From Nymphaea colorata (Eukaryota > Streptophyta > Magnoliopsida > Nymphaeales > Nymphaeaceae): 64,000 nucleotides of DNA. The notes under the pieces are model-generated. The model ran no database searches. It had not been told where the DNA came from and saw only the letters and a list, made by a program, of their open reading frames with translations. The stretch is taken from positions 8,258,001-8,322,000 of the forward strand of contig NC_045150.1 in assembly GCF_008831285.2 (NCBI RefSeq), read 5' to 3'. Shown here one piece after another: positions 24,183-46,018 of the stretch. The first letter of the stretch is position 1; the number at the start of each line of letters is the position of its first letter. Position numbers and translations under genes: made by a program.

Positions 24183-24741
24183 CTTGGCATATGACACTAA
24201 CAATTGGCTTGCTTAAACAATATTGGATAACTTTTTTATATAATATATAAGTGTCACCAATGGCACCCTTGAAAACTCTTCATATGTTGCTGATGGTACT
24301 CTTAGAAGCTCTCAACATATCGTTAAGGGTTTACGAAATATTGAAATATAAAATATTAAAGATTTTCAAATATGGGTATTACATCGAACTGGATAGTGAC
24401 AAGTATAAACTTGACGGTGGAGCCCAACCAGATAACTAAGTGGGCTAGAGACTAGAGTTGGGCTGCCAGCAAAGGCTACGGGCCAGCCGAACCCTGTTTG
24501 AGTGTTGGGCCGGCCCGACCCAGCCTTATACTAAAAATATAGATTGGGGAGGGAGAGAGATATGAAAAATCTCAGCCGTCATATTATATATTTGATGACT
24601 GGGATTTGTTGTCTAATAATGTAAAGTTAGCATCGAAGGACTATATATATATATATATAGATTATATTTATTTATTTACATACATAATGATGATGATAAT
24701 AATAATAACAATATATTTTATAAATTTGATGACTGGGATTT
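22610..24741. other. Intergenic region upstream of POLD3
   Basis: The first few hundred bases should include the POLD3 promoter and leader (minus strand). Beyond that the DNA is AT-rich, with a long (TA)n tract at 24125-24179. Flanking segments are rich in GGCCCGACC/GGTCGGGC-type motifs (about 23990-24100 and 24420-24530), typical of degenerate plant repeats. No gene was recognised. Confidence 0.55.
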
Positions 24742-27700: not shown

Positions 27701-28852
27701 ATGATTCTGATACAAGCTGACTTTGCACAAACAGACAGCTACCGGATTCCACGCGGAAAAACGACTCCCGAAAACACTGGTTTCACAAATATCTATATGC
27801 ATTTACAAGTAGCAAAAAAAAACTAAGAGTACTCATGAGGCCAGTTTTCTAATATATATTACATAGATTTTTGTCGAATCTTACGAACTCAGTCCAAATG
27901 AAAAGAGCTTCAAACTGCAACTAATTTGTAGCCATCACCGTCAACGATTGGACTTCAAAGAAGCAGTGGAGGACATCAGCGTCGATGGCAACCATCCGCC
28001 ATTGTCGTTTTTTAAACAGCGGATCTTGAAGCAAGCAGGCATTAGTCGGACAACGAAAGTTCCTCTTTTCTCGAGGGACTTCAGTTAAAATAATAAACTA
28101 ATCTTAAAGGGATGCAAATCAATGCCTCTCACCTTGTCGGTACTGTATGTTCACACCTATGGTTGCATCAAAACGGCGGGTCTACGCGACGTTCGGAAAC
28201 ATAAAGATCTCCCCACGAACGCCTCTTTATCTCTCCTCGGGCGATCCGCGGAGTCTGACCACCTCCCAGATCTGATCGAACCAACCGCTGCGTGCCAACT
28301 ATATCTCAGGTCAACCTGTTGGCTTATTTCGTCCTCCGACGTTCTCTTTTCGTGATTTGGTAGTCATCATTGGATTGAAGAACAAGGAGAGTGATTCACA
28401 GGTCCCCGTTGATTGATACTGACAATTGATCTTGTTGGTTCGGATGGTTGGTTATTCTTTCTTTTTTTGTTTATGGGAGATTTATTGGCTTGGTTGGTGA
28501 CAGACGAGAAGGTGGGATTTGGTTTTCTTGTATCGGGAGCTGGTTCGCCTGAATTTGGTGTTAGTGAAGATGGGCACCTCTGATTGGTTCCTCTTAACGT
28601 TGCTTGTGGTGGAGTTGACGTTTCCAGGACATGGATTCGGTAATCGATTATGCTCGACGGAATTATTGTAATTCTGGCAACCATTCGGATAGGATGCTCT
28701 GTCTTGATTAGTTCGACTATATTATGATTGTTCATTTTTTAGTGGCGACTGGTGAGTGATTGCCTGGGACGTCCGCTGCAGAGAGAGAGAGAGAGAGGTC
28801 AATGGGAGAAGGCAGTCACGTGGATGCTGAGAAGAATGAAGAGGGTGAAGAT
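24742..28852 (+). repeat. Left copy of a duplicated promoter/5' block (matches ~46532-50119)
   Basis: The block matches, in the same orientation and order, the region leading into the TPT-family transporter gene on the far side of the MADS array. Landmarks include 'gtggtaactaataaaagtg' (24757; right copy ~46545), 'gggagccgccgagcggctt' (~25408; right ~47058) and 'atgcctctcaccttgtcgg' (28122; right 49403), followed by the first ~50 coding bases of the transporter. Over a 195-base stretch near 28122 I counted about 8 differences. Larger indels distinguish the copies (24870-25370 and 46640-47020 are unique). No gene remains at this end. Confidence 0.85.
27206..27386. repeat. Compound tandem repeat (35 bp x3, then ~51 bp x2)
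   Basis: Three 35-base units containing 'aagtaggtatctagtttg' (27206-27310) run into two units of about 51 bases that share that core plus 'gtgagcattatggtagatt'. The right copy of the duplicated block keeps only one partial unit, near 48772. The expansion is therefore specific to the left copy. Confidence 0.85.
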
Positions 28853-28855
28853 TGA
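28802..28855 (+). pseudogene. Truncated exon 1 of the TPT-family transporter (left duplicate)
   Basis: The ATG at 28802 matches the transporter start at 50071, and the first ~14 codons agree (MGEGSHVDAEKNEE). The copy then diverges, reads MGEGSHVDAEKNEEGED and stops at 28853-28855. No later transporter exon follows; the array begins within 80 bases. This is the broken end of a segmental duplication that still has its upstream region (about 4 kb), so it may be transcribed into the array. Coding function is unlikely. Confidence 0.85.
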
Positions 28856-28928
28856 TAACGCACGAGCTCACTCCAAAAAAATGAAGAGGGTGAAGATTGA
28901 TAACGCACCAGCTCACTCCAAAAAATGA
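28836..28928 (+). repeat. 45-bp tandem duplication at the left edge of the array
   Basis: Two 45-base units (28836-28880, 28881-28925) encode, in one frame, two near-identical 15-aa repeats: MKRVKIDNARAHSKK, then the same with a Pro for the Arg, followed by TGA. The sequence straddles the point where transporter homology ends and the array begins. The short basic peptide is probably a by-product. I see no secure link to a MADS domain. Confidence 0.7.
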
Positions 28929-29225
28929 GGTGAGTCTCCAATGGCTCAGGCTGGCCGATTGAACTGGGAGAAAGGGAAAGGGAATGGAATAATGGAAAGA
29001 AGACGAAAGAGGTGAGGTGAAGCTTGTTCAATCCCTCCCTTTTCAATCCTACCATTCCCTCCAACCATTTAAAAGAACTACGCAGCCACTCTTTCCCCCT
29101 CTCCCTTCCTGTTCAATCTCTCCCTCCCAGTTCAATCGGCAGCCACTCTCTCCCCCTCTTCCTCCCTGTTCAATCGGCAGCCACTTCCTCCCAGTTCAAT
29201 CGGCCAACTTTGGACTTGCTTGAAG

Positions 29226-29549
29226 ATGAGAAAAAAGAGGATTAACATGGAAATGATTGAAGATAAGCAAAAGAGGCACGTCACCTCCTCTAAGAGGAGG
29301 AATGATCTCTTCAAAAAGGCGGAGGAGCTCTGCTCTGTTACAAGTACCACCATTGCCATCATCTGCTTTAGTGAAGAAGTAGGAAACCCCTTCACTTTCT
29401 GCCATCCTCCTCCTGCGGATGGCCACCAACAATTCCTGCAGCAGTACTATGGGAGTTCCAGTGGCTGCACCATCACTGCTGCTCCTTCCCAATCAGCACC
29501 CGTGGGTGAACCCAAATCGATTGGAGAAATTGTGTCCGTCTCAAGTTAG
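29226..29549 (+). CDS. Type I MADS-box frame, copy 1 (107 aa, divergent)
   Basis: Begins MRKKRINMEMIEDKQKRHV and continues through [17 protein letters not shown] to [18 protein letters not shown]. The family core S-K-R-R...LFKKA..LC and the FCHP segment (FGHP in many M-alpha proteins) identify a MADS domain, and the absence of a K-box indicates type I. This copy is the most divergent: TSS for TFS, SVTSTT for SLTGAT, an extra codon near EEVG, and a stop seven codons earlier than the 114-aa copies. M-alpha proteins such as AGL61/AGL62 act as nuclear DNA-binding heterodimers in the female gametophyte and endosperm. Whether this copy is expressed is unknown. Confidence 0.7.
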   Translation: MRKKRINMEMIEDKQKRHVTSSKRRNDLFKKAEELCSVTSTTIAIICFSEEVGNPFTFCHPPPADGHQQFLQQYYGSSSGCTITAAPSQSAPVGEPKSIGEIVSVSS

Positions 29550-30163
29550 GAGGAGGAAATCAGCAAGAAATGAGGCTGCAACCTCAGTTGCAGAGCATGC
29601 AGGAGAAGGAGGCGACTCTCCTGGAGCCGGCCCGTGCCCAACCAGTGGAGGAAGGCCTGGTTGACTCAAGCATTAATCTTGTGAGTATTAATTGTTGTTA
29701 TTCTTGGACTTCTCTACCTCCATTGCCATGGACCGATGTTTTGTTTTCGCCATCGTCATCATCCTCAATTCCATTGCCATCGACCGATGCCTTGTTTTCG
29801 CCATCGTCATCATCCTCAATTCCATTGTCATTGACCGATCGATGAAATGAAAGGGGAGGAAGGAAAAGGGGAAGCGTCTCTTTTGCTTATCTTCAATCAT
29901 TTCCATGCTAATCCTCTTTTTTCCCATCTTCAAGCAAGTCGAAGGCTGGCAGATTGAACTGGGAGGAAGTGAAAGGGAATGGAAGAATGGAAAGAAGACG
30001 AAAGAGGTGAGGTGAAGCTTGTTCAATCCCTCCCTTTTCAATCTCACCCTTCCCCCCAACCATTTAAAAGAACTACGCAGCCACTCTCTCCCCCTCTCCC
30101 TCTCTGTTCAATCGGCAGCCACTTCCTCCCAGTTCAATCGACCAGCTTTGAACTTGCTTGAAG

Positions 30164-30508
30164 ATGGGAAAAAAGAGGATTAGCATGGAAAGGATTGAAG
30201 ATAAGCAAAAGAGGCACGTCACATTCTCCAAGAGGAGGAATGATCTCTTCAAAAAGGTGGAGGAGATCTGCTCTCTTACAGGTGCCACCATTGCCATCAT
30301 CTACTTCAGTGAAGCAGGAAACCCCTTCACTTTCTGTCATCCTCCTCCTGCGGATGGCCACCAACAATTCCTGCAGCAGTACTATGGGAGTTCCAGTGGC
30401 TGCACCATCACTGCTGCTCCTTCCCAATCAGCACCTGTGGGTGAACCCAAATCGATTGGAGAAATTGTGTCCGTCTCAAGTTGGGAGGAGGAAATCAGCA
30501 AGAAATGA
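30164..30508 (+). CDS. Type I MADS-box protein, copy 2 (114 aa, open)
   Basis: The full-length frame starts MGKKRISMERIEDKQKRHV. It holds [19 protein letters not shown] (DNA-binding and dimerisation helix), [18 protein letters not shown] (beta strands), a short Gln/Ser-rich C-terminal part ([14 protein letters not shown]) and the end SWEEEISKK. It is the last unit on the plus strand. An inverted truncated start lies 236 bp upstream on the opposite strand (29927). The short C-terminal region and lack of a K-box fit type I. Confidence 0.75.
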   Translation: MGKKRISMERIEDKQKRHVTFSKRRNDLFKKVEEICSLTGATIAIIYFSEAGNPFTFCHPPPADGHQQFLQQYYGSSSGCTITAAPSQSAPVGEPKSIGEIVSVSSWEEEISKK

Positions 30509-31476
30509 GACTGCAACCTCAGTTGCAGAGCATGCAGGAGAAGGAGGCGACTCTCCTGGAGCCGGCCCATGCCCAACCAGTGGAGGAAGGCCTGGTTGAC
30601 TCAAGCATTAATCTTGTGAGTATTAATTGTTGTTATTCTTGGACTTCTCTACCTCCATTGCCATGGACCGATGCTTTGTTTTCGCCATCGTCATCATCCT
30701 CAATTCCATTGCCATCGACCGATGCCTTGTTTTCGCCATCGTCATTATCCTCAATTCCATTGCCATCGACCGATGGATGAAATGAAAGGGGAGGAAGGGA
30801 AAGGGGAAGTGCCTCTTTTGCTTATCTTCCATCATTTCCATGTTAATCCTCTTTTTTCCCATCTTCAAGCAAGTCCAAGGTTGGCCGATTGAACTGGGAG
30901 GAAGGGAAAGAGAATGGAAGAATGAAAAGAAGACGAAAGAGGTGAGGTGAAGCTTGTTCAATCCCTCCCTTTTCAATCTCACCCTTCCCCCCAACCATTT
31001 AAAAGAACTACGCAGCCACTCTCTCCCCCTCTCCCTCTCTGTTCAATCGGCAGCCACTTCCTCCCAGTTCAATCGACCAGCTTTGAACTTGCTTGAAGAT
31101 GGGAAAAAAGAGGATTAGCATGAAAAGGATTGAAGATAAGCAAAAGAGGCACTTCCCCTTTCCCTTCCTCTCCTTTTATTTCATCTATCGGTCGATGGCA
31201 ATGGAATTGAGGATGATGACGATGGCGAAAACAAGGCATCGGTCGATGGCAATGGAATTGAAGATGATGACGATAGCGAAAACAAAGCATCGGTCCATGA
31301 CAATGGAGGTAGAGAAGTCCAAGAATAACAACAATTAGTACTCACAAGATTAATGCTTGAGTCAACCAGGCCTTCTTCCATTGGTTGGGCACGGGCCGGC
31401 TCCAGGAGAGCTGCCTCCTTCTCCTGCATGCTCTGCAACTGAGGTTGCAGCATCATTTCTTGTTGATTTCCTCCTC

Positions 31477-31797
31477 CTAACTTGAGACGGGCACAATTTC
31501 TCCAATCGATTTGGTTTTACCCACGAGTGCTGATTGGGAAGGAGCAGGAGTGATGGTGCAGCCACTGGAACTCCCATAGTACTGCTGCAGGAATTGTTGG
31601 TGGCCATCCGCAGAAGGAGGATGACAGAAAGTGAAGGGGTTTCCTGCTTCACTGAAGCAGATGATGGCAATGGTGGCACCTGTAAGAGTGCAGATCTCCT
31701 CCGCCTTTTTGAAGAGATCATTCCTCCTCTTGGAGAAGGTGACGTGCCTCTATTGCTTATCTTCAATCCTTTCCATGTTAATCCTCTTTTTTCTCAT
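31477..31797 (-). pseudogene. Type I MADS-box copy 3, nonsense codon early in the domain
   Basis: First minus-strand unit after the orientation switch. It begins MRKKRINMERIEDKQ and then has TAG where other copies have the Lys of QKRH. Beyond it the MADS frame continues to TAG at 31477-31479. The remaining domain matches the family ([21 protein letters not shown]). Re-initiation downstream would lose the DNA-binding N-terminus. Confidence 0.8.
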
Positions 31798-32368
31798 CTT
31801 CAAGCAAGTCCAAGGCTGGCCAATTGAACTGGGAGGAAGTGGCTGCCGATTGAACAGGGAGGGAGAGGGGGAGAGAGTGGCTGCGTAGTTCTTTTAAATG
31901 GTTGGGGGGAAGGGTGTGATTGAAAAAGGAGGGATTGAACAAGCTTCACCTCACCTTTTTTGTCTTCTTTCCATTCTTCCATTTCCTTTCCCTTCCTCAC
32001 AGTTCAGTCGACCGGCCTTGGACTTGCTTGAAGATGGGAAAAAAGAGGATTAGCCTGGAAAGGATTGAAGATAAGCAAAAGAGGCACTTCCCCTTTCCCT
32101 TCCTCCCCTTTCATTTCATCAATCGATCGATGGCAATGGAATTGAGGATGATGACGATGGCGAAAACAATGCATCGGTCGATGGTAATGGAATTGAGGAT
32201 GATGACGATGGCGAAAACAATGCATCGGTCCATGGCAATGGAGGTAGAGAAGTCCAAGAATAACAAGATTAATGCTTGAGTCGACCAGGCTTTCCTCCAT
32301 TGGTTTGGCACGGGCCGGCTCCAGGAGAGCCGCCTCCTTCTCCAATTTGCTCTGCAACTGAGGTTGCA

Positions 32369-32713
32369 GCCTCATTTCTTGCTGATTTCCTTCTCCAACT
32401 TGAGACAAACACAATTTCTCCAATCGATTTAGGTTCACCCACGGGTGCTGATTGGGAAAGAGCAGCAGTGATGGTGCAGCCAGAACTCCCTTAGTACTGC
32501 TGCAGGAATTGTTGGTGGCTATTCGCAGAAGGATGATGACAGAAAGTGAAGGGGTTTCCTGCTTCACTGAAGCAGATGATGGCAATGGTGGCACCTGTAA
32601 GAGAGCAGATCTCCTCCACCTTTTTGAAGAGATCATTCCTCCATTTTGAAAAAGGTGACGTGCCTCTTTTGCTTATCTTCAATCATTTCCATGCTAATCC
32701 TCTTTTTTCTCAT
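32369..32713 (-). pseudogene. Type I MADS-box copy 4, shared +1 frameshift
   Basis: Begins MRKKRISMEMIEDKQKRHVT. It then reads TTTTTCAAAATGG instead of TTCTCCAAGAGG, one base longer, which ends the frame within a few codons. The rest of the domain is preserved in another frame. Copies 6, 10 and 12 carry the same change (class B). Confidence 0.8.
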
Positions 32714-33278
32714 CTTCAAGCAAGTCCAAGGCTGGCCGATTGAATTGGGAGGAAGTGGCTGCCGATTGAACAGGGAGGGAGAGGGGGAGAGAGTGGTTGC
32801 ATAGTTCTTTTAAATGGTTGGGGGGAAGAGTGGGATTGAAAAGGGAGGGATTGAACAAGCTTCACATCACCTCTTTCGTCTTCTTTCCATTCTTCCATTC
32901 CCTTTCACTTCCTCCCAGTTCAATCGGCCAGCCTTCGACTTGCTTGAAGATGGGAAAAAAGAGGATTAGCATGGAAATGATTGAAGATAAGCAAAAGAGG
33001 CACTTCCCCTTTCCCTTCCTCCCCTTTCATTTCATCCATCGGTCGATGGCAATGGAATTGAGGATGATGACGATGGCGAAAACAAGGCATCGGTCGATGG
33101 CAATGGAATTGAGGATGATGACGATGGCGAAAACAAAGATGTCAATTGAGGTAGAGAAGTCCAAGAATAATAAGATTAATGCTTTAGTCAACCAGGCCTT
33201 CCTCCATTGATTGGGCACGGGCCGGCTCCAGGAGAGCCACCTCCTTCTCCTGCATGCTTTGCAACTGAGGTTGCATCC

Positions 33279-33623
33279 TCATTTCTTGCTGATTTTCTCC
33301 TCCCAACTTGAGACGGGCACAATTTCTCCAATCGATTTAGCTTCACCCACGGGTGCTGATTGGGAAGGAGCAGCAGTGATGGTGCAGCCACTGGAACTCC
33401 CATAGTACTGCCGCAGGAATTGTTGGTGGCTATCCGCAGAAGGAGGATGGCAGAAAGTGAAGGGGTTTCCTGCTTCACTGAAGCAGATGATGGCAATGGT
33501 GGCACGTGTAAGAGAGCAGATCTCCTCCGCCTTTTTGAGGAGATCATTCCTTCTCTTGGAGAAGGTGACGTGCCTCTTTTGCTTATCATCAATCCTTTCC
33601 ATGCTAATCCTCTTTTTTCTCAT
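33279..33623 (-). CDS. Type I MADS-box protein, copy 5 (114 aa, open)
   Basis: Intact frame: [52 protein letters not shown], ending SWEEKISKK. Leu replaces Phe in the FKKA motif, and TRAT replaces TGAT. The divergent decoy start is at 33860, 236 bp away on the plus strand. Confidence 0.75.
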   Translation of the reverse strand: MRKKRISMERIDDKQKRHVTFSKRRNDLLKKAEEICSLTRATIAIICFSEAGNPFTFCHPPSADSHQQFLRQYYGSSSGCTITAAPSQSAPVGEAKSIGEIVPVSSWEEKISKK

Positions 33624-33859
33624 CTTCAAGCAAGTCCAAGGCTGGCCGATTGAACTGGGAGGAAGTGGCTGCCGATTGAACAGGGAGGGAGAAGGGGAGA
33701 GGGTGGCTGTGTAGTCATTTTAAATGGTTGGGGGGAAGAGTGGGATTGAAAAGGGAGGGATTGAACAAGCTTCACCTCACCTCTTTCGTCTTCTTTCCAT
33801 TCTTCCATTCACTTTCCCTTCCTCCCAGTTCAGTCGGCCAGCCTTGGACTTGCTTGAAG
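33624..33859. promoter_or_regulatory. Representative 236-bp divergent inter-start segment
   Basis: Lies between the MADS start (33623, minus) and the decoy start (33860, plus). Both flanks carry 'cttgcttgaag' just before ATG, then the same leader ('ggccagcctt' with 'gttcaatcggcc'/'gttcagtcggcc'), so the two sides are mirror images for ~45 bases outside the ATG and ~50 inside it. The middle contains CT-rich runs, a 'gttcaatcggcagccactt' block and a TTTAAA near 33718 that could act as a TATA-like element in either direction. The same arrangement, 229-238 bp long, recurs in almost every unit (for example 31798-32033, 39980-40215 and 42704-42939). A bidirectional promoter is inferred, not shown. 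Confidence 0.5.
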
Positions 33860-34188
33860 ATGAGAAAAAAGAGGATTAGCATGGAAATGATTGAAGACAA
33901 GCAAAAGAGGCACTTCCCCTTTCCCTTCCTCCCCTTTCATTTCATCCATCGGTCGATGGCAATGGAATTGAGGATGATGACGATAGCGAAAACAAGGCAT
34001 CGGTCGATGGCAATGGAACTGAGGATGATGACGATGGCGAAAACAAAGATGGCAATGGAGCTATAGAAGTCCAATAATAATAAGATTAATGCTTGAGTCA
34101 ACCAGGCCTTCCTCCATTGGTTGGGTACGGGCCGGCTCCCGGAGAGCTGCCTCATTCTCCTGGATGCTCTGCAACTGAGGTTGCAACC

Positions 34189-34525
34189 TCATTTCTTGTT
34201 GATTTCCTCCTCCCAACTTGAGACAGACACAATTTCTCCAATCGATTTGGGTTCACCCACGGGTGCTGATTGGGAAGGAGCAGCAGTGATGGTGCAGCCA
34301 CTGGAACTCCCATAGTACTGCTGCAGGAATTGTTGGTGGCTATCCGCAGAAGAAGGATGACAGAAAGTGAGGTGGTTTCCTGCTTCATTGAAGCAGATGA
34401 TGGCACCTGTAAGAGAGCAGATCTCATTCGCCTTTTTGAAGACATCATTACTCCATTTTGAAAAAGGTGACGTGGCTCTTTTGCTTATCTTCAATCCTTT
34501 CCATGCTAATCATCTTTTTTCTCAT
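34189..34525 (-). pseudogene. Type I MADS-box copy 6, class B frameshift plus small deletion
   Basis: Starts MRKKMISMERIEDKQKSHVT and carries the +1 change of copies 4, 10 and 12. A second change removes a few codons after SLTGA, giving GAIICFNEAG. The C-terminal frame to the usual TGA is open but disconnected from the start. Confidence 0.8.
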
Positions 34526-35135
34526 ATTCAAGCAAGTCCAAGGCTGGCCGATTGAACTGGGAGGAAGTAGCTGCCGATTGAACAGGGAGGGAGAGGGGCA
34601 GAGAGTGGCTGTGTAGTTCTTTTAAATAGTAGGGGGGAAGGGTGAGATTGAAAAGGGAGACATTGAACAATCTTCACCTCACCTCTTTCGACTTCTTTCC
34701 ATTCTTCCATTCCCTTTTCCTTCCTCTCAGTTCAGTTGGCCAGCCTTGGACTTGCTTGAAGATGGGAAAAAAGAGGATTAGCATGGAAAGGATTGAAGAT
34801 AAGCAAAAGAGGCACCTCCCCTTTCCCTTCCTCCCCTTTCATTTCATCCATCGGTCAATGGCAATGGAATTGAGGATGATGACGATGGCGAAAACAGGGC
34901 ATCGGTCGATGGCAATGGAATTGAGGATGATGACGATGGCGAAAACAAAGATGGCAACGGAGATAGAGAAGTCCAAGAATAATAAGATTAATGCTTAAGT
35001 CAACCAGGCCTTCCTCCATTGGTTGGGCACGGGCCGGCTCCAGGAGAGCCGCCTCCTTCTCCTGCATGCTCTGCAACTGAAGTTGCAACATCATTTCTTG
35101 CTGATTTCCTCCTCTCAACTTGAGACAGGCACAAT

Positions 35136-35435
35136 TTATCCTATCGATTTGGGTTCTCCCACGGGTGCTGATTGGGAAGGAGCAGCAGTGATGGTGCAGC
35201 CACTAGAACTCCCATAGTACTGCTGCAGGAATTGTTGGTGGCTATCCGCTGAAGGAGGATGGCAGAAAGTGAAGGGGTTTCCTGCTTCACTGAAGCAGAT
35301 GATGGCAATGGTGGCACCTGTAAAAGAGTAGATCTCCTCTGCCTTTTTGAAGAGATCAATCCTCCTCTTGGAGAAGGTGACGTGCCTCTTTTGCTTTTCT
35401 TCAATCCTTTCAATCCTAATCCTCTTTTTTCTCAT
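35136..35435 (-). CDS. Type I MADS-box frame, copy 7 (99 aa, C-terminally short)
   Basis: Open from MRKKRIRIERIEEKQKRHV through [19 protein letters not shown] and [13 protein letters not shown] to KSIG, where a TAA ends it 15 codons before the usual stop. The complete MADS domain is present. Substitutions such as CSL to YSF are unusual for the cluster. It could be functional, since the lost tail is short. Confidence 0.6.
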   Translation of the reverse strand: MRKKRIRIERIEEKQKRHVTFSKRRIDLFKKAEEIYSFTGATIAIICFSEAGNPFTFCHPPSADSHQQFLQQYYGSSSGCTITAAPSQSAPVGEPKSIG

Positions 35436-35740
35436 CTTCAAGCAAGTCCAAGGCTGGCCGATTGAACTCGGAGGAAGTGGCTGCCGATTGAACAGGGAGG
35501 GAGAGGGGGAGAGATTGGATGCGTAGTTCTTTTAAATGGTTGGGGGGAAGGGTGAGATTGTAAAGGGAGGGATTGAACAAGCTTTACCTCACCTCTTTCG
35601 TCTTCTTTCTATTCTTCCATTTCCTTTCCATTCCTCCCAGTTCAGTCGGCCAGCCTTGGACTTCTTCTAAATGGTTGGGGGAAGGGAGAGATTGAAAAGG
35701 GAGGGATTCTCCTGTATGCTCTGCAACTGAGGTTGCAACC

Positions 35741-36082
35741 TCATTTCTTGCTGATTTCCTCCCAACTTGAGACGGGCACAATTTCTCCAATCGATTTGGC
35801 TTCACCCACGGGTGCTGATTGGGAAGGAGCAGCAGTGATAGTGCAGCCACTGAAACTCCCATAGTACTGCTGCAGGAATTGTTGGTGGCTATCTGCTGAA
35901 GGAGGATGGCAGAAAGTGAAGGGGTTTCCTGCTTCACTGAATCAGATGATGGCAATGGCGGCACCTGTAAGAGAGCAGATCTCCTCTGCCTTTTTGAAGA
36001 GATCATTCCTCCTCTTGGAGAAGGTGACGTGCCTCTTTTGCTTTTCTTCAATCATTTCCATCCTAATCCTCTTTTTTCTCAT
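35741..36082 (-). pseudogene. Type I MADS-box copy 8, shared TGA (46-codon mini-MADS)
   Basis: Reads MRKKRIRMEMIEEKQKRHV, then [19 protein letters not shown], and stops with TGA directly after AIAII, leaving 46 codons. Copies 14, 15 and 17 have the same TGA (class A). The unit also lacks the usual tail and inverted start, because a deletion joins 35665 to about 35710. One codon is missing near the C-terminal stop, as in copy 14. Confidence 0.8.
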
Positions 36083-36604
36083 CTTCAAGCAAGTCCAAGG
36101 CTGGCCGATTGAACTGGGAGGAAGTGGCTGCCGATTGAACAGGGAGGGAGAGGGGGAGAGAGTGGCTGCGTAGTTCTTTTAAATGGTTGGGGGAAGGGAG
36201 AGATTGAAAAGGGAGGGATTGAACAAGCTTCACCTCACCTCTTTCGTCTTCTTTCCATTCTTCCATTTCCTTTCCCTTCCTCCCAGTTCAGTCGGCCAGC
36301 CTTGGACTTACTTGAAGATGGAAAAAAAGAGGATTAGCAAGGAAAGGATTGAAGATAAGCAAAATAGGCACTTCCCCTTTCCCATCCTCCCCTTTCATTT
36401 CATCCATCGGTCGATGGCAATGGAATTGACGATGATGACAATGGCGAAAACAAGGCATCGGTCCATGGCAATGGAGGTAGAGAAGTCCAAGAATAACAAG
36501 ATTAATGCTTGAGTCAACCAGGCCTTCCTCCATTGATTGGGCACGGGCCGGCTCCAGGAGAGCCATCAACTTCTCGTGCATGCTTTGCAACTGAGGTTGC
36601 AACC

Positions 36605-36948
36605 TCATTTCTTGCTGATTTCCTCCTCCCAACTTGAGACGGGCACAATTTCTCCAATCGATTTGGCTTCACCCACGGTGCTGATTGGAAAGAAGCAGCA
36701 GTGATGGTGCAGCCACTGGAACTCCCATAGTACTGCCGCAGGAATTGTTGGTGATTATCCGCAGAAGAAGGATGGCAGAAAGTGAAGGGGTTTCCTGCTT
36801 CACTGAAGCAGATGATGACAATAGTGGCACGTGTAAGAGAGCAGATCTCCTCCACCTTTTTGAAGAGATCATTCCTCCTCTTGGAGAAGGTGACATGCCT
36901 CTTTTGCTTATCTTCAATCCTTTCCATGCTAATCCTCTTCTTTCTAAT
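36605..36948 (-). pseudogene. Type I MADS-box copy 9, start codon lost and frame shifted late
   Basis: The usual initiator ATG is ATT here (36946-36948). The next in-frame ATG, at 36927, opens MERIEDKQKRHV. The MADS domain is intact through [15 protein letters not shown] one-base loss in the 'cccacggtgctg' stretch then moves the frame into [10 protein letters not shown], open down to 36514. A 5'-shortened product is possible but would lack the first seven residues. Confidence 0.75.
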
Positions 36949-37515
36949 CTTCAAGCAAGTCCAAGGCTGGCCGATTGAACTGGTAGGAAGTGGCTGATCG
37001 GGGAGGGAGAGGGGCAGAGAGTGGCTGCGTAGTTCTTTTAAATAGTTGGGGGGAAGGGTGGGATTGAAAAGGGAGGGATTGAACAAGCTTCACCTCACCT
37101 CTTTCGTCTTCTTTCCATTCTTCCATTCCATTTCCCTTCCTCCCAGTTCAGTCGGCCAGCCTTGGACTTGCTTGAAGATGGGAAAAAAGAGGATTAACAT
37201 TGAAAAGATTGAAGATAAGCAAAAGTGGCACTTCCCCTTTCCCTTCCTCCCCTTTCATTTCATCCATCGGTCGACGGCAATGAAATTGAAGATGATGACG
37301 ATGGCGAAAACAAGGCATCGGTCGATGGCAATGAAATTGAGGATGATGACGATGGCGAAAACAAAGCATCGGTCCATGGCAATGGAGGTAGAAAAGTCCA
37401 AGAATAACAAGATTAATGCTTGAGTCAACCAGACCTTCCTCCATTGGTTGGGCACGGGCTGGCTCCAGGAGAGCCGCCTCCTTCTCTTGCATGCTCTGCA
37501 ACTGAGGTTACAGCC

Positions 37516-37858
37516 TCATTTCTTGATGATTTCCTCCTCCCAACTTGAGACAGACACAATTTCTCTAATCGATGTGGGTACACCAACGGGTGCTGATTGG
37601 GAAGGAGCAGCAGTGATGGTGCAGCTAGAGCTCCCATAGCACTGCTGCAGGAATTGTTGGTGACTATCCGCAGAAGGAGGATGGCAGAAAGTGAAGGGAT
37701 TTCCTGCTTCACTGAAGCAGATGCTGGCAATGGTGGCACCTGTAAGAGATCAGATCTCCTCTGCCTTTTTGAAGAGATCATTCCTCCATTTTGAAAAAGG
37801 TGACGTGACCCTTTTCCTTATCTTCAATCCTTTCCATGCTAATCCTCTTTTTTCTCAT
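37516..37858 (-). pseudogene. Type I MADS-box copy 10, class B frameshift
   Basis: Same +1 change after QKRVT-like codons as copies 4, 6 and 12, followed by the conserved domain out of frame (ATNNSC... in the shifted frame). It also has local differences around the Ala/Leu-rich C-terminal part and a 3-base loss there. Confidence 0.75.
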
Positions 37859-38424
37859 CTTCAAGCAAGTCCACGGCTGGCCGATTGAACTGGGAGAAAG
37901 TGGCTGCCGATTGAACAGGGAGGGAGAGGGGGAGAGAGTGGCTGCGTAGTTCTTTTGTATGGTTGGGGGGAAGAGTGGGATTGAAAAGGGAGGGATTGAA
38001 CAAGCTTCACCTCACCTCTTTCGTCTTCTTTCCATTCTTCTATTCCCTTTCCCTTCCTCCCAGTTCAGTCGGCCAGTCTTGGACTTGCTTGAAGATGGGA
38101 AAAAAGAGGATTAGCATGGAAAGAATTGAAGATAAGCAAAAGAGGCACTTCCCCTTTTCCTTCCTCCCCTTTCATTTCATCCTTCGGTCGACGGTAATGG
38201 AATTGAGGATGATGACGATGGCGAAAACAAGGCATCGGTCGATGGCAATGGAATTGAGGATGATAACGATGGCGAAAACAAAGATGGCAATGGAGGTAGA
38301 AAAGTCCAAGAATAACAAGATTAATGCTTGAGTCAACCATGCCTTCCTCCATTGATTGGGCACGGGCTGGCTCCAGGAGAGCCACCTCCTTCTCCTGCAT
38401 TGCTCTGCAACTGAGGTTGCAACG

Positions 38425-38573
38425 TCATTTCTTGTTGATTTCCTCCTCCCAACTTCAGACAGACACAATTTCTCCAATCGATTTGGCTTCACCCACGGGT
38501 GCTGATTGGGAAGGAGCAGTGATGGTGCAGCCACTAGAACTCGCATAGTACTGCCGCAGGAATTGTTGGTTGC
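38425..38573 (-). pseudogene. Type I MADS-box copy 11, C-terminal fragment only
   Basis: Only the part from HQQFLRQYYA to the usual TGA remains. At about 38574 it is joined directly to a tail minisatellite piece ('gacgatggcgaaaacaaag'). The MADS domain and start region are missing, the footprint of an unequal recombination event. Confidence 0.85.
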
Positions 38574-38733
38574 TGACGATGGCGAAAACAAAGATGGCAA
38601 TGGAGGTATAGAAGTCCAAGAATAATAAGATTAATGCTTGAGTCAACCAGGCCTTCCTCAATTGGTTGGGCACGGGCCGGCTCTCGGAGAGCCGCCTCCT
38701 TCTCCTGCATGCTCTGGAACTGAGGTTGCAACC

Positions 38734-39079
38734 TCATTTCTTGCTGATTTCCTCCTTCCAACTTGAGACGGGCACAATTTCTCCAATCGATTTGGCTTCA
38801 CCCAAGGGTGCTGATTGGGAAGGAGCAGCAATGATGGTGGAGCCACTGGAACTCCCATAGTACTGTCGCATAAATTGTTGGTGGCTATCCGCAGAAGGAG
38901 GATGACAGAATGTGAAGGGGTTTCCAGCTTCACTGAAGCAGATGATGGCAATGGTGGCACCTGTAAGAGTACAGATCTCCTTCGCCTTTTTGAACAGATC
39001 ATTCCTCCATTTTGAAAGAGGTGACATGACTCTTTTGCTTATCTTCAATCATTTCCATGCTAATCCTCTTTTTTCTCAT
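38734..39079 (-). pseudogene. Type I MADS-box copy 12, class B frameshift
   Basis: Starts MRKKRISMEMIEDKQKSHV-like and carries the class B change near 39005, reading TTTCAAAATGG. The downstream frame ([19 protein letters not shown]... to SWKEEISKK) is open but disconnected from the initiator. Confidence 0.78.
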
Positions 39080-39634
39080 CTTCAAGCAAGTCCAAGGCTG
39101 ACCGATTGAATTGGGAGGAAGTGGCTGCCGATTGAACAAGGAGGGAGAGGGGGAGAGAGTGGCTGCGTAGTTCTTTTAAATGGTTGGGTGGAAGAGTGGG
39201 ATTGAAAAGGGAGGGATTGAACAAGCTTTTCACCTCACCTCTTTCGTCTTCTTTCCATTCTTCCATTCCCTTTCCCTTCCTCGGAGTTCAGTCGGCCAGC
39301 CTTGGACTTACTTGAAGATGGGGAAAAAGAGGATTACCATGAAAAGGATTAAAGATAAGCAAAATAGGCACTTCCCCTTTCCCTTCCTCCCCTTTCATTT
39401 CATCCATCGGTCGATGGCAATGGAATTGAGGATGATGACGATGGCGAAAACAAGGCATCGGTCGATGGCAATGGAATTGAGGATGATGACGATGACGAAA
39501 ACAAAGCATCGGTCCATGGCAATGGAGGTAGAGAAGTCCAAGAATAACAAGATTAATGCTTGAGTCAACCACACGGGCCGGCGCCAGGAGAGCCATCTCC
39601 TTCTCCTGCATGCTCTGCAACTGAGGTTGCAACC

Positions 39635-39979
39635 TCATTTCTTGCTGATTTCCTCCTCCCAACTTGAGACGGGCACAATTTCTCCAATCGATTTAGCTTC
39701 ACCCACGGGTGCTGATTGGGAAGGAGCAGCAGTGATGGTGCAGTCACTGGAACTCCCATAGTACTGCCGCAGGAATTGCTGGTGGCTATCCGCAGAAGTA
39801 GGATGGCAGAAAGTGAAGGGGTTTCCTGCTTCATCGAAGTAGATGATGGCAATGGTGGCACGTGTAAGAGAGCAGATCTCCTCCGCCTTTTTGAAGAGAT
39901 CATTCTTCCTCTTGGAGAAGGTGACGTGCCTCTTTTGCTTATCTTCAATCCTTTCCATGCTAATCCTCTTTTTTATCAT
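39635..39979 (-). CDS. Type I MADS-box protein, copy 13 (114 aa, open)
   Basis: Intact frame: [52 protein letters not shown], ending SWEEEISKK. SKRK replaces SKRR, a conservative change at a DNA-contacting position. It shares the TRAT and IIYF features with copy 19 and so is probably closely related to it. Confidence 0.75.
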   Translation of the reverse strand: MIKKRISMERIEDKQKRHVTFSKRKNDLFKKAEEICSLTRATIAIIYFDEAGNPFTFCHPTSADSHQQFLRQYYGSSSDCTITAAPSQSAPVGEAKSIGEIVPVSSWEEEISKK

Positions 39980-40544
39980 CTTCAAGCAAGTCCAAGGCTG
40001 GCCGATTGAACTGGGAGGAAGTGGCTGCCGATTGAACAGGGAGGGAGAGGGGGAGAGAGTGGCTGCGTAGTTCTTTTAAATGGTTGGGTGGAAGAGTGGG
40101 ATTGAAAAGGGAGGGATTGAACAAGCTTCACCTCACCTCTTTCGTCTTCTTTCCATTCTTCCATTCCTTTTCCCTTCCTCCCAGTTCAGTCGGCCAGCCT
40201 TGGACTTGCTTGAAGATGGGAAAAAAGAGGATTAGCATGGAAAGGATTGAAGATAAGCAAAAGAGGCACTTCCCCTTTCCCTTCCTCCTCTTTAATTTCA
40301 TCCATCGGTCGATAGCAATGGAATTGAGGATGATGACGATGGCGAAAACAAGGCATCGGTCGATGGCAATGGAATTGAGGATGATGACGATGGCGAAAAC
40401 AAAGATGGCAATGGAGGTAGAGAAGTCCAAGAATAATAAGATTAATGCTTGAGTCAACCAGGCCTTCCTCCATTGGTTGGGCATGGGTCGGCTATCGGAG
40501 AGTCGCCTTCTTCTCCTGCATGCTCTGCAACTGAGGTTGCAACC

Positions 40545-40886
40545 TCATTTCTTGCTGATTTCCTTCCAACTTGAGACGGACACAATTTCTCCAATCGATT
40601 TGGCTTCACCCACGGGTGCTGATTGGGAAGGAGCAGCAGTGATAGTGCAGCCACTGAAACTCCCATAGTACTGCTGCAGGAATTGTTGGTGGCTATCTGC
40701 TGAAGGAGGATGGCAGAAAGTGAAGGGGTTTCCTGCTTCACTGAATCAGATGATGGCAATGGCGGCACCTGTAAGAGAGCAGATCTCCTCTGCCTTTTTG
40801 AAGAGATCATTCCTCCTCTTGGAGAAGGTGACGTGCCTCTTTTGCTTTTCTTCAATCATTTCCATCCTAATCCTCTTTTTTCTCAT
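40545..40886 (-). pseudogene. Type I MADS-box copy 14, class A TGA
   Basis: Near-identical to copy 8: MRKKRIRMEMIEEKQ, TGA at 40746-40748 after AIAII, and the same missing codon near the C-terminal stop. Copies 8 and 14 thus appear to be products of one recent duplication, now 4.8 kb apart. Confidence 0.8.
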
Positions 40887-41449
40887 CTTCAAGCAAGTCC
40901 AAGGCTGGCCGATTGAACTGGGAGGAAGTGGCTGCCGATTGAACAGGGAGGGAGAGGGGGAGAGAGTGGCTGCGTAGTTCTTTTAAATGGTTGGGGAAGG
41001 GAGAGATTGAAAAGGGAGGGATTGAACAAGCTTCACCTCACCTCTTTCGTCTTCTTTCCATTCTTCCATTCCCTTTCCCTTCCTCCCAGTTCAGTCGGCC
41101 AGCCTTGGACTTGCTTGAAGATGGGAAAAAAAAGGATTAGCATGGAAAGGATTGAAGACAAGCAAAAGTGGCACTTCCCCTTTCCCTTCCTCCCCTTTCA
41201 TTTCATCCATCGGTCGATGGCAATGGAATTGAGGATGATGACGATGACGAAAACACGGCATCGGTCGATGGCAATGGAATTGAGGATGATGACGATGGCG
41301 AAAACAAAGATGGCAATGGAGGTATAGAAGTCCAATAATAATAAGATTAATACTTGAGTCAACCAGGCCTTCCTCCATTGGTTGGGCACGGGCCGGCTCC
41401 CGGAGAGCCGCCTTCTTCTCCTGCATGCTCTGCAACTGAGGTTGCAACC

Positions 41450-41794
41450 TCATTTCTTGCTGATTTCCTCCTCCCAACTTGAGACGGGCACAATTTCTCC
41501 AATGGATTTGGCTTCACCCACGGGTGCTGATTGGGAAGGAGCAGCAGTGATAGTGCAGCCACTGAAACTCCCATAGTACTGCTGCAGGAATTGTTGGTGG
41601 CTATCCGCTGAAGGAGGATGGCAGAAAGTGAAGGGGTTTCCTGCTTCACTGAATCAGATGATGGCAATGGTGGCACCTGTAAGAGAGCAGATCTCCTCTG
41701 CCTTTTTGAAGAGATCATTCCTCCTCTTGGAGAAGGTGACGTGCCTCTTTTGCTTTTCTTCAATCCTTTCCATCCTAATCCTCTTTTTTCTCAT
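41450..41794 (-). pseudogene. Type I MADS-box copy 15, class A TGA
   Basis: Begins MRKKRIRMERIEEKQKRHV and has the shared TGA at 41654-41656. It differs from copies 8 and 14 in MER for MEM and in retaining the C-terminal codon they lack. Confidence 0.8.
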
Positions 41795-42358
41795 CTTCGA
41801 GCAAGTCCAAGGCTGGCCGATTGAACTGGGAGGAAGTGGCTGCCGATTGAACAGGGAGGGAGAGGGGGAGAGAGTGGCTGCGTAGTTCTTTTAAATGGTT
41901 GGGGGAAGGGTGAGATTGTAAAGGGAGGGATTGAACAAGCTTTACCTCACCTCTTTTGTCTTCTTTCCATTCTTCCATTTCCTTTCCCTTCCTCCCAGTT
42001 CAGTCGGTCAGCCTTGGACTTGCTTGAAGATGGGAAAAAAGAGGATTAACATTGAAAAGATTGAAGATAAGCAAAAGTGGCACTTCCCCTTTCCCTTCCT
42101 CCCCTTTCATTTCATCCATCGGTTGATGGCAATGGAATTGAGGATGATGACGATGGCGAAAACAAGGCATCGGTCGATGGCAATGGAATTGAGGATGATG
42201 ACGATGGCGAAAACAAAGATGGCAATGGAGGTAGAGAAGTCCAAGAATAATAAGATTAATGCTTGAGTCAACCAGGCCTTCCTCCATTGGTTGGGCATGG
42301 GCCGGCTATCGGAGAGCCGCCTTCTTCTCCTGCATGCTCTGCAACTGAGGTTGCAACC

Positions 42359-42703
42359 TCATTTTTTGCTGATTTCCTCCTCCCAACTTGAGACGGGCAC
42401 AATTTCTCCAATCGATTTGGCTTCACCCACGGGTGCTGATTGGGAAGGAGCAGCAGTGATAGTGCTGCCACTGGAACTCCCATAGTACTGCTGCAGGAAT
42501 TGTTGGTGGCTATCTGCTGAAGGAGGATGGCAGAAAGTGAAGGGGTTTCCTGCTTCACTGAAGCAGATGATGGCAATGGTGGCACCTGTAAGAGAGCAGA
42601 TCTCCTCTGCCTTTTTGAAGAGATCATTCCTCCTCTTGGAGATGGTGACGTGCCTTTTTTGCTTTTCTTCAATCCTTTCCATCTTAATCCTCTTTTTTCT
42701 CAT
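42359..42703 (-). CDS. Type I MADS-box protein, copy 16 (114 aa, open)
   Basis: Intact frame: [66 protein letters not shown], ending SWEEEISKK. Ile replaces Phe in TFSKRR. Its closest relative is copy 18, which shares TISKRR but is broken. Confidence 0.75.
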   Translation of the reverse strand: MRKKRIKMERIEEKQKRHVTISKRRNDLFKKAEEICSLTGATIAIICFSEAGNPFTFCHPPSADSHQQFLQQYYGSSSGSTITAAPSQSAPVGEAKSIGEIVPVSSWEEEISKK

Positions 42704-43268
42704 CTTCAAGCAAGTCCAAGGCTGGCCGATTGAACTGGGAGGAAGTGGCTGCCGATTGAACAGGGAGGGAGAGGGGGAGAGAGTGGCTGCGTAGTTCTTT
42801 TAAATGGTTGGGTGGAAGAGTGGGATTGAAAAGGGAGGGATTGAACAAGCTTCACCTCACCTCTTTCGTCTTCTTTCCATTCTTCCATTCCCTTTCCCTT
42901 CCTCCCAGTTCAGTCGCCCAGCCTTGGACTTGCTTGAAGATGGAAAAAAAGAGGATTAACATGAAAAGGATTGAAGATAAGCAAAAGAGACACTTCCCCT
43001 TTCCCTTCCTCCTCTTTAATTTCATCCATCGGTCGATAGCAATGGAATTGAGGATGATGACGATGGCGAAAACAAGGCATCGGTCGATGGCAATGGAATT
43101 GAGGATGATGACGATGGCGAAAACAAAGATGGCAATGGAGGTAGAGAAGTCCAAGAATAATAAGATTAATGCTTGAGTCAACCAGGCCTTCCTCCATTGG
43201 TTGGGCATGGGCCGGCTATCGGAGAGCCGCCTTCTTCTCCTGCATGCTCTGCAACTGAGGTTGCAACC

Positions 43269-43613
43269 TCATTTTTTGCTGATTTCCTCCTCCCAACTTG
43301 AGACGGGCACAATTTCTCCAATCGATTTGGCTTCACCCACGGGTGCTGATTGGGAAGGAGCAGCAGTGATAGTGCAGCCACTGAAACTCCCATAGTACTG
43401 CTGCAGGAATTGTTGGTGGCTATCTGCTGAAGGAGGATGGCAGAAAGTGAAGGGGTTTCCTGCTTCACTGAATCAGATGATGGCAATGGCGGCACCTGTA
43501 AGAGAGCAGATCTCCTCTGCCTTTTTGAAGAGATCATTCCTCCTCTTGGAGAAGGTGACGTGCATCTTTTGCTTTTCTTCAATCATTTCCATCCTAATCC
43601 TCTTTTTTCTCAT
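43269..43613 (-). pseudogene. Type I MADS-box copy 17, class A TGA
   Basis: Reads MRKKRIRMEMIEEKQKMHV-like with TGA at 43473-43475 after AIAII. It shares the MEM variant with copies 8 and 14. Its C-terminal end has 'KK' encoded by a longer A-run, as in copy 16. Confidence 0.78.
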
Positions 43614-44177
43614 CTTCAAGCAAGTCCAAGGCTGGCCGATTGAACTGGGAGGAAGTGGCTGCCGATTGAACAGGGAGGGAGAGGGGGAGAGAGTGGCTGC
43701 GTAGTTCTTTTAAATGGTTGGGGGAAGGGAGAGATTGAAAAGGGAGGGATTGAACAAGCTTCACCTCACCTCTTTCGTCTTCTTTCCATTCTTCCATTCC
43801 CTTTCCCTTCCTCCCAGTTCAGTCGGCCAGCCTTGGACTTACTTGAAGATGGGAAAAAAGAGGATTAGCATGAAAAGGATTGAAGATAAGCAAAATAGGC
43901 ACTTCCCCTTTTCCTTCCTCCCCTTTCATTTCATCCATCGGTCGATGGCAATGAAATTGAGGATGATGATGATGGCGAAAACAAGGCATCGGTCGATGGC
44001 AATGGAATTGAGGATGATGACGATGACGAAAACAAAGATGGGAATGGAGGTAGAGAAGTCCAAGAATAATAAGATTAATGCTTGAGTCAACGAGGCTTTC
44101 CTCCATTGGTTGGGCATGGGCCGGCTCTCGGAGAGCCGCCTTCTTCTCCTGCATGCTCTGCAACTCAGGTTGCAACC

Positions 44178-44522
44178 TCATTTCTTGCTGATTTCATCCT
44201 CCCAACTTGAGACGGGCACAATTTCTCCAATCGATTTGGCTTCACCCACGGGTGCTGATTGGGAAGGAGCAGCAGTGATAGTGCAGCCACTGGAACTCCC
44301 ATAGTACTGCTGCAGGAATTGTTGGTGGCTATCTGCTGAAGGAGGATGGCAGAAAGTGAAGGGGTTTCGTGCTTCACTGAAGCAGATGATGGCAATGGTG
44401 GCACCTGTAAGAGAGCAGATCTCCTATGCCTTTTTGAAGAGATCATTCCTCCTCTTGGAGATGGTGACGTGCCTTTTTTGCTTTTCTTCAATCCTTTCCA
44501 TCCTAATCCTCTTTTTTCTCAT
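44178..44522 (-). pseudogene. Type I MADS-box copy 18, private nonsense codon
   Basis: Begins MRKKRIRMERIEEKQKRHV and [13 protein letters not shown], then has TAG (44424-44426) in place of the next Glu codon. A Gly-to-Arg change follows later (FSEARNP). The rest is open to the usual end. The lesion is not seen in any other copy. Confidence 0.8.
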
Positions 44523-45081
44523 CTTCAAGCAAGTCCAAGGCTGGCCGATTAAAGTGGGAGGAAGTGGCTGCCGATTGAAGAGGGAGGGAGAGGGGGAGAG
44601 AGTGGCTGCGTAGTTCTTTTAAATTGTTGGGGGGAAAGGTGGGATTGAAAAGGGAGGGATTGAACAAGCTTCACCTCACCTCTTTCGTCTTCTTTCCATT
44701 CTTCCATTCCCTTTCCCTTCCTCCCAGTTCAGTCGGCCAGCCTTGGACTTCGAAGATGGGATAGCATGGAAGGATTGAAGATAAGCAAAATAGGCACTTC
44801 CCCTTTCCCTTCCTCCCCTTTCATTTCATCCATCGGTCGATGGCAATGGAATTGAGGATGATGACGATAGCGAAAACAAGGCATCGGTCGATGGCAATGG
44901 AATTGAGGATGATGACGATGGCGAAAACAATGCATCGGTCCATGGCAATGGAGTTAGAGAAGTCCAAGAATAACAAGATTAATGCTTGAGTCAACCAGGC
45001 CTTCCTCCATTGATTGGGCACGGGCCGGCTCCAGGAGAGCCACCTCCTTCTCCTGCATGCTCTGCAACTGAGGTTGCAACT

Positions 45082-45426
45082 TCATTTCTTGTTGATTTCC
45101 TCCTCCCAACTTGAGACGGACACAATTTCTCCAATCGATTTGGCTTCACCCACGGGTGCTGATTGGGAAGGAGCAGCAGTGATGGTGCAGCCACTGGAAC
45201 TCCCATAGTACTGCCGCAAGAATTGCTGGTGGCTATCCGTAGAAGTAGGATGGCAGAAAGTGAATGGGTTTCCTGCTTCACCGAAGTAGATGATGGCAAT
45301 GGCGGCACGTGTAAGAGAGCAGATCTCTTCCGCCTTTTTGAAGAGATCATTCCTCCTCTTGGAGAAGGTGACGTGCCTCTTTTGCTTATCTTCAATCCTT
45401 TCCATGCTAATCCTCTTTTTTCTCAT
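45082..45426 (-). CDS. Type I MADS-box protein, copy 19 (114 aa, open)
   Basis: Last unit of the array and intact: [52 protein letters not shown], ending SWEEEINKK. It abuts the right array edge. Its divergent partner start at 45663 is no longer open for the whole decoy frame. Confidence 0.75.
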   Translation of the reverse strand: MRKKRISMERIEDKQKRHVTFSKRRNDLFKKAEEICSLTRAAIAIIYFGEAGNPFTFCHPTSTDSHQQFLRQYYGSSSGCTITAAPSQSAPVGEAKSIGEIVSVSSWEEEINKK

Positions 45427-45743
45427 CTTCAAGCAAGTCCAAGGCTGGCCGATAGAACTGGAAGGAAGTGGCTGTCGATTGAACAGGGAGGGAGAGAAGC
45501 AGAGAGTGGCTGCGTAGTTCTTTTAAATAGTTGGGGAGAAGGGTGGGATTGAAAAGGGAGGGATTGAACAAGCTTCACCTCACCTCTTTCGTCTTCTTTC
45601 CATTCTTCCATTCCTTTTCCCTTCCTCCCAGTTCAGTCGGCCGGCCTTGGACTTGCTTGTAGATGGGAAAAAAGAGGATTAACATGGAAAGGATTGAAGA
45701 TAAGCAAAAGAGACACTTTCCCTTTCCCTTCCTCCCCTTTCAT

Positions 45744-45970
45744 TTCATCCATCGGTCGATGGCAATGGAATTGAAGATGATGACGATGACGAAACAAGGC
45801 ATCGGTCGATGGCAATGGAATTGAGGATGATGACGATGGCGAAAACAAAGCATCGGTCCATGGCAATGGAATTGAGGATGATGACGATGGCGAAAACAAG
45901 GCATCGGTCGATGGCAATGGAATTGAGGATGATGACGATGGCAAAAACGAAGCATCGGTCCATGGCAATG
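45744..45970. repeat. 51-bp minisatellite, four copies (array right end)
   Basis: Unit: GATGGCAATGGAATTGAGG followed by ATGATGACGATGGCGAAAAC and ~12 bases ending in CATCGGTC, 51 bases or 17 codons. Most array units have two copies; this terminal one has four. The frame-neutral length keeps three frames open: basic/Met-rich (MAMELRMMTMAKTKHRS), acidic (DGNGIEDDDDGENKASV) and, on the other strand, hydrophobic (VFAIVIILNSIAIDRCL). Confidence 0.85.
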
Positions 45971-46018
45971 GAGGTAGAGAAGTCCAAAAATAACAACAAT
46001 TAGTACTCACAAGATCAA

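What the first reader, a model, noticed from the sequence alone, without database searches (positions are those of the whole stretch)
28930..46018. Nineteen-copy tandem array of type I MADS-box units with ~910-bp periodicity
Type I MADS genes often occur in small clusters. A satellite-like array of near-identical 910-bp units, each a MADS gene plus regulatory spacer, is unusual. Five copies have a full 114-codon frame (30164, 33279, 39635, 42359, 45082), two are open but shorter, and twelve are damaged. It looks like a recently amplified family in which functional and dead members are being homogenised together.
Basis: partly seen in the sequence, partly recalled or inferred. Interest (0 to 1): 0.75.

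Follow-up and report, generated by a model that had tools for sequence, protein, structure and literature searches.

The report
Decaying hairpin-rich MADS gene array
In this plant DNA a small regulatory gene, together with a backward copy of its own beginning, has been multiplied into nineteen mostly broken copies that could fold into long hairpins and might silence related genes, although no activity has been shown.

Summary
The array is real: 18 full and one partial MADS gene blocks at 28948-46012, consensus unit 910 bp, mean identity 93.7%. Five 114-codon frames are intact and match Pfam SRF-TF. "Functional members being homogenised" is not supported: codon changes look neutral (N/S 0.86 of expectation, p 0.24), coding sequence is as divergent as spacer, five intact frames are no more than decay predicts, and most variants are private to one copy. 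(1) Nearly every unit carries an inverted 104-bp copy of the gene's own 5' end; the one unit tested folds as a strong hairpin, z -12.5. (2) The array flips inside that arm at about 31 kb, making a palindrome with 1.9-kb arms, 89.5% identical. (3) It starts about 100 bp behind a duplicated upstream region and first 17 codons of the neighbouring gene, pointing into the palindrome. The layout resembles the soybean I locus, a silencing locus. Best reading: a neutral gene-derived array that would make double-stranded RNA if transcribed; transcription is untested.

The parts
24739..28855 (+). Duplicate of 46526-50124: upstream region and first 17 codons of the neighbouring gene, ending in a premature TGA; points into the array
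   Evidence: 27583-28855 vs 48854-50124 at 91.1%, 25374-27191 vs 47021-48765 at 79.3%, 24739-24845 vs 46526-46630 at 92.5%; ATG at 28802 matches ATG at 50071; 17 codons then stop
28948..46012 (.). MADS array: 18 full units and 1 partial gene block, consensus unit 910 bp; right end approximate (about 46005-46015)
29226..29549 (+). U01 MADS frame, 107 aa (one in-frame inserted codon, then TAG)
   Evidence: SRF-TF E 1.7e-16
30164..30508 (+). U02 MADS frame, intact 114 aa
   Evidence: SRF-TF E 2.9e-21
33279..33623 (-). U05 MADS frame, intact 114 aa
   Evidence: SRF-TF E 1e-19
35136..35435 (-). U07 MADS frame, 99 aa, two stops
39635..39979 (-). U12 MADS frame, intact 114 aa
   Evidence: SRF-TF E 2.8e-20
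42359..42703 (-). U15 MADS frame, intact 114 aa
   Evidence: SRF-TF E 5.2e-20
45082..45426 (-). U18 MADS frame, intact 114 aa
   Evidence: SRF-TF E 1.6e-20; matches to MCM1, SRF, MEF2 and SEP3 chains
38425..38574 (-). Partial gene block, 3' end only, inside the 1221-bp unit
45621..45724 (+). Example of the inverted stub: 42 bp upstream plus 62 bp of MADS coding sequence, head to head with the U18 gene
   Evidence: hairpin fold z -12.5
45365..45468 (-). Partner arm: 5' end of the U18 gene
31039..31160 (+). Inversion arm: gene-type sequence before it, stub-type sequence after it, so the switch of orientation lies inside the MADS arm
   Evidence: flanks read by eye
28948..32934 (.). Large palindrome: 28948-30904 against the reverse complement of 31057-32934 (1958 aligned columns, 89.5%)
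44831..44952 (.). Example of the 51-bp minisatellite in the 3' part of the unit

Best explanation
This is a gene-derived, satellite-like array that is decaying neutrally. Order of events, inferred: a short type I-like MADS gene ending at codon 114 acquired an inverted copy of its own 5' end, head to head, with about 150 bp between the two arms. That 910-bp cassette was multiplied by unequal exchange in a burst, dead copies included. Recombination between inverted arms flipped the leftmost units and left a palindrome of about 2 x 1.9 kb. A local duplication of about 4 kb put the upstream region and first 17 codons of the neighbouring gene in front of the array, pointing into the palindrome. Shown here: the anatomy, the neutral pattern, the shared lesions, the breakpoint inside the arm, and the duplication. 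Inferred: the order, the mechanism of amplification, that the duplicated upstream region holds a working promoter, and that a transcript through the array would fold into double-stranded RNA and feed small RNA pathways rather than make protein. I give about 0.75 to neutral decay without present protein function, and about 0.25 to small RNA production of any biological relevance.
For: 128 distinct CDS changes, 90 nonsynonymous against 93.8 expected, p 0.24; CDS mean divergence from consensus 0.037-0.040 against 0.023-0.043 in the other parts of the unit. Intact frames: 5 seen, 7.4 expected among the 13 copies without a frameshift, P(5 or fewer) 0.13. Shared lesions: TGA at codon 47 in U08, U13, U14, U16; one frameshift haplotype in U04, U06, U10, U11. 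Consensus stub and gene arms differ at 2 of the first 96 positions, 4 of 104 in all. 17 of 18 units fold with at least 80 pairs between the arm regions; z -12.5 in the one unit tested by shuffling. Palindrome. Duplication; its promoter-proximal part has K2P 0.069 against an array mean of 0.065, a similar age if rates are equal.
Against: Five frames are still intact, and the selection test pools 18 copies, so constraint on one or two copies cannot be excluded. In the MADS part third codon positions carry most changes (21, 18, 31), though the N/S test there gives p 0.27. The intact-frame model treats copies as independent, which they are not. Hairpin pairing is not maintained: each gene matches its own stub no better than other stubs (90.1% both, permutation p 0.66, 16 units). 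C-to-T changes are not concentrated at CG or CHG sites (p 0.32 and 0.17), so methylation is not shown. The farther part of the flanking duplication is only 79% identical (81-83% under the scoring), so it may be older than the array. There are no expression data.
Confidence: 0.68

Rival explanations
1. Selected silencing locus: the captured promoter transcribes the palindrome, Dicer-like enzymes cut the hairpin, and the small RNAs repress the parental MADS gene or its relatives, as at the soybean I locus.
For: Upstream region plus truncated first exon in front of a palindrome, the layout described for the I locus in passages of PMC6418295; small RNAs acting on AGL MADS genes in endosperm are reported in passages of PMC11649575.
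Against: No transcript or small RNA data; hairpin arms show no co-conservation; the target gene could not be looked for.
Confidence: 0.2
2. Living gene family: the five intact copies make short MADS-only proteins that dimerise with other MADS proteins and act as dominant regulators.
For: Five full SRF-TF domains; each gene has upstream sequence with a TATA-like stretch (by eye).
Against: Neutral codon pattern; intact number as expected from decay; dead copies were multiplied too.
Confidence: 0.1
3. Assembly artefact: the array is collapsed, expanded or partly inverted by mis-assembly.
For: Near-identical repeats with an orientation switch are a known trouble spot (general knowledge); no reads available.
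Against: 236 of 336 distinct variants are private to one copy and the most alike pair is 98.9%; the switch lies in a homologous arm.
Confidence: 0.06

Closest known systems
Soybean I locus (subtilisin promoter next to inverted chalcone synthase repeats)
   Same: A promoter and truncated 5' gene fragment lies in front of an inverted cluster of another gene family, pointing into it (passages of PMC6418295)
   Different: There an inversion brought the promoter, here a duplication; MADS gene, more copies, a hairpin in nearly every unit; no transcript or small RNA seen here
Origin of microRNA genes by inverted duplication of a target gene
   Same: An inverted duplicate of a gene segment in divergent orientation (model as described in passages of PMC3237417)
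   Different: Arms of about 104 bp in 17 tandem near-complete copies; no Rfam family reached its gathering score in the window; no small RNA shown
Stellate / crystal repeats of Drosophila
   Same: Clustered copies of a protein-coding repeat, silenced by small RNAs from homologous repeats (passages of PMC3335654)
   Different: Different gene, kingdom and pathway; no driver-suppressor pair known here
Birth-and-death evolution of plant type I (M-type) MADS genes
   Same: Frequent duplication and pseudogenisation (passages of the review PMC13293092)
   Different: Here a regular 910-bp array with a built-in inverted repeat

Membership tests
MADS-box (SRF-TF) genes | SRF-TF domain above Pfam's curated cut-off | tested here: met
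   Five of five intact frames and the 107-aa frame, 59.8-75.1 bits against a cut-off of 26; the other copies were not scanned
Plant type I, M-alpha MADS genes | No K-box | tested here: met
   No K-box match in the 6 MADS frames scanned at E up to 1; they end at codon 107-114, so a lost K-box would not be seen
Plant type I, M-alpha MADS genes | Sequence closer to M-alpha than to type II proteins | tested here: inconclusive
Functional protein-coding gene family | Purifying selection on the frame | tested here: not met
   N 90, S 38, expected N 93.8, p 0.24, pooled over 18 copies
Inverted-repeat silencing locus (I-locus kind) | Promoter fragment reading into an inverted gene repeat | tested here: inconclusive
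   The layout is met; promoter activity is untested
Inverted-repeat silencing locus (I-locus kind) | Small RNAs and a repressed target gene | not testable with these tools
   No RNA data; no genome held for this window
Concerted (homogenised) tandem array | Neighbouring copies more alike; few private variants | tested here: not met
   Mantel r 0.085, p 0.22; 236 of 336 variants private. Some exchange remains possible: four-gamete incompatibility 0.31 against mean 0.25 and maximum 0.32 in 100 simulations without exchange

The most novel reading that the evidence does not exclude
A newly formed silencing locus aimed at MADS genes of the seed: a captured promoter reads into a palindrome of MADS copies, nearly each with its own hairpin, giving massively repeated small RNAs against the parental type I MADS gene. 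It would be a plant counterpart of the Stellate/crystal system and a candidate player in parent-of-origin conflict or hybrid seed failure.
Probability: 0.18. Interest if true: 0.85.

Novelty: new variant of a known kind. Interest (0 to 1): 0.5.

Why it matters
Type I MADS genes steer endosperm development, and small RNAs that target them are proposed to set hybrid seed success in Capsella (passages of PMC11649575). How loci that make such small RNAs are born is a live question. This locus shows steps of a possible birth in one place: inverted copy of a gene start, amplification, inversion, and a neighbour's upstream region placed in front. It is directly testable with small RNA data from the species. 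Even if inert, it is a clear case of a coding gene turned into a satellite-like array in which dead copies multiplied.

Tried and rejected
Whole-genome search for the progenitor: no genome is held for this window, so the single-copy parent and the species were not found. I did not search the prokaryote and virus collections. Rfam at gathering scores: no match in the window. ARAGORN with the bacterial code: no tRNA. Local homogenisation: not supported. Hairpin maintained by selection or arm-to-arm conversion: not supported. Methylation scar: C-to-T changes are about five times commoner per site than A-to-G, but without significant CG or CHG preference; a general plant mutation bias (recalled) would explain it. 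The ts/tv ratio differs weakly from the flanking duplication (202:134:44, p 0.035). Alternative +1 frame: 15 ORFs of 90 aa or more in the list (counted by eye), but no sign of selection (ratio 1.02). A longer ancestral C-terminus in the -1 frame of the tail: no match at E up to 10 to the recalled proteins. The neighbouring gene at 50071 looks like a sugar-phosphate or nucleotide-sugar transporter to me (recalled); four pieces scanned singly gave no Pfam match (50071-50688, three more), so the name is unconfirmed. Paper searches for a published type I MADS array of this kind: one search listed 6 of 6, one search found 0, one search listed 12 of 207; I saw titles and abstract starts only and none of these described one; that is not proof of absence.
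Full report
Observation. A BLAST of one gene block against the window gives 18 full hits and one partial, nineteen in all, between 28948 and about 46012. Two full units lie on the + strand (U01, U02); 16 full units and the partial block lie on the - strand. The consensus unit is 910 bp; the 18 full units share 93.7% identity on average (89.9-98.9). The five intact frames and the 107-aa frame match Pfam SRF-TF at 59.8-75.1 bits, cut-off 26. The one frame compared with solved structures matches MCM1, SRF, MEF2 and SEP3.

Are the frames alive? Among 128 distinct coding changes 90 are nonsynonymous; random placement of the same changes gives 93.8 (ratio 0.86, p 0.24). In the MADS part alone the ratio is 0.83 (p 0.27), with a third-position surplus (21, 18, 31 changes). 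Mean divergence from consensus is 0.040 in the MADS part and 0.037 in the rest of the frame, against 0.023 to 0.043 in other parts of the unit. With the observed substitutions per copy, 7.4 of the 13 copies without a frameshift are expected to stay open; 5 do (P of 5 or fewer 0.13; copies treated as independent, which they are not). Four copies share a stop at codon 47 and four share one frameshift haplotype, so dead copies were multiplied. The TGA after codon 114 stands in 19 of 19 copies, so any truncation came before the amplification. The test pools copies and cannot exclude selection on one of them.

Homogenisation. Of 336 distinct variants 236 occur in one copy; similarity does not follow physical distance (Mantel r 0.085, p 0.22; adjacent mean divergence 0.057 against 0.062 overall). 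A few copies far apart are recent duplicates (U08, U13, U16 at 98.6-98.9%). Four-gamete incompatibility is 0.31 against a simulated mean of 0.25 and maximum of 0.32 in 100 runs without exchange: some exchange is possible, not shown. This looks like a burst followed by separate decay.

Head to head with the gene, about 150 bp from arm to arm, lies an inverted copy of 42 bp of upstream sequence plus the first 62 coding bases. The window holds 17 near-complete stubs and one 33-bp remnant (at U07); U01's own stub is cut by the array's left edge. In the consensus the two arms differ at 2 of the first 96 positions and 4 of 104. The region of U18 folds at -212.4 kcal/mol, z -12.5 against 100 shuffles. 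Of 18 units, 17 fold with at least 80 pairs between the arm regions; U01 does not. Gene arms match their own stub at 90.1% and other stubs at 90.1% (permutation p 0.66; the 16 units with a usable stub), so the pairing is inherited, not maintained.

Missed, 2: the inversion. At 31039-31160 the sequence before the MADS arm is of the gene type and after it of the stub type (by eye), so the switch of orientation lies within the arm. Recombination between inverted arms explains it (inference). The outcome is a palindrome: 28948-30904 against 31057-32934, 1958 columns, 89.5%.

Missed, 3: the neighbour's upstream region. 24739-28855 duplicates 46526-50124. It carries the upstream region and the first 17 codons of the gene at 50071, then a stop; the array begins about 100 bp on. 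The near part is 91% identical, K2P 0.069, close to the array mean of 0.065; the farther part is 79% identical, which argues against one simple age. A transcript from this region, if it is a working promoter, would enter U01 and U02 in sense and U03 onward in antisense. No AATAAA lies on the + strand between 28092 and 46555, weak evidence since plant signals are loose.

Mechanism. I commit to: cassette formation (gene plus inverted own start), burst by unequal exchange, inversion by the arms, and a neighbour's upstream region put in front by local duplication. The anatomy is shown; the order is inferred. Protein function is unlikely. If transcribed, RNA from this locus is expected to be double-stranded and to feed small RNA pathways; that it is transcribed is untested.

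Comparison. At the soybean I locus an inversion brought the promoter and first exons of a subtilisin gene next to an inverted chalcone synthase cluster, and a chimeric antisense transcript was amplified (passages of PMC6418295). The layout here agrees; transcript, small RNA and target are untested, so I say it may work like one, not that it is one. The inverted-duplication model of microRNA birth (passages of PMC3237417) covers the single unit. Small RNAs acting on AGL MADS genes in endosperm in cis and in trans are reported in Capsella (passages of PMC11649575), and the review PMC13293092 (passages) describes rapid birth and death of M-type genes. Type I membership here rests on no K-box match, an intron-free frame and a recalled FxHP motif; BLAST against six recalled proteins did not decide.

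Verdict. Real, richer in structure than described, and mostly dead as genes. New variant of a known kind; interest 0.5, rising to 0.85 if small RNAs are found.

Noticed in passing
24739-28855 and 46526-50124: Segmental duplication flanking the array, 91% identical in the promoter-proximal part and 79% farther away; of the CG sites compared in the near part 50 are kept in both copies and 7 read TG or CA in one.
   Followed up: partly
28835-28945: A 45-bp direct repeat at the truncated exon, followed by GAG/GTGAGT, which looks like a splice donor (by eye), just before the array starts.
   Followed up: no
45750-45972 and other units: A 51-bp minisatellite in the 3' part of many units (about two copies; 4.4 at the right edge).
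   Followed up: no
43849-44085 and other stubs: On the strand opposite to the gene the stub runs on through the minisatellite as a chimeric open frame: 10 of the 13 stubs matched by a start pattern give 78-81 aa; no Pfam match for the two tested.
   Followed up: partly
30240-30599 and other units: A +1-frame ORF of about 119 aa overlaps the MADS frame; 15 such ORFs of 90 aa or more are listed, more than open MADS frames; no sign of selection.
   Followed up: partly
6670-8643: Open frame for a plant U-box protein with ARM repeats (Pfam U-box and ARM_PUB).
   Followed up: yes
400-707 and 3331-3768: A pair of diverged direct repeats (72-82% identical) outside the array.
   Followed up: no
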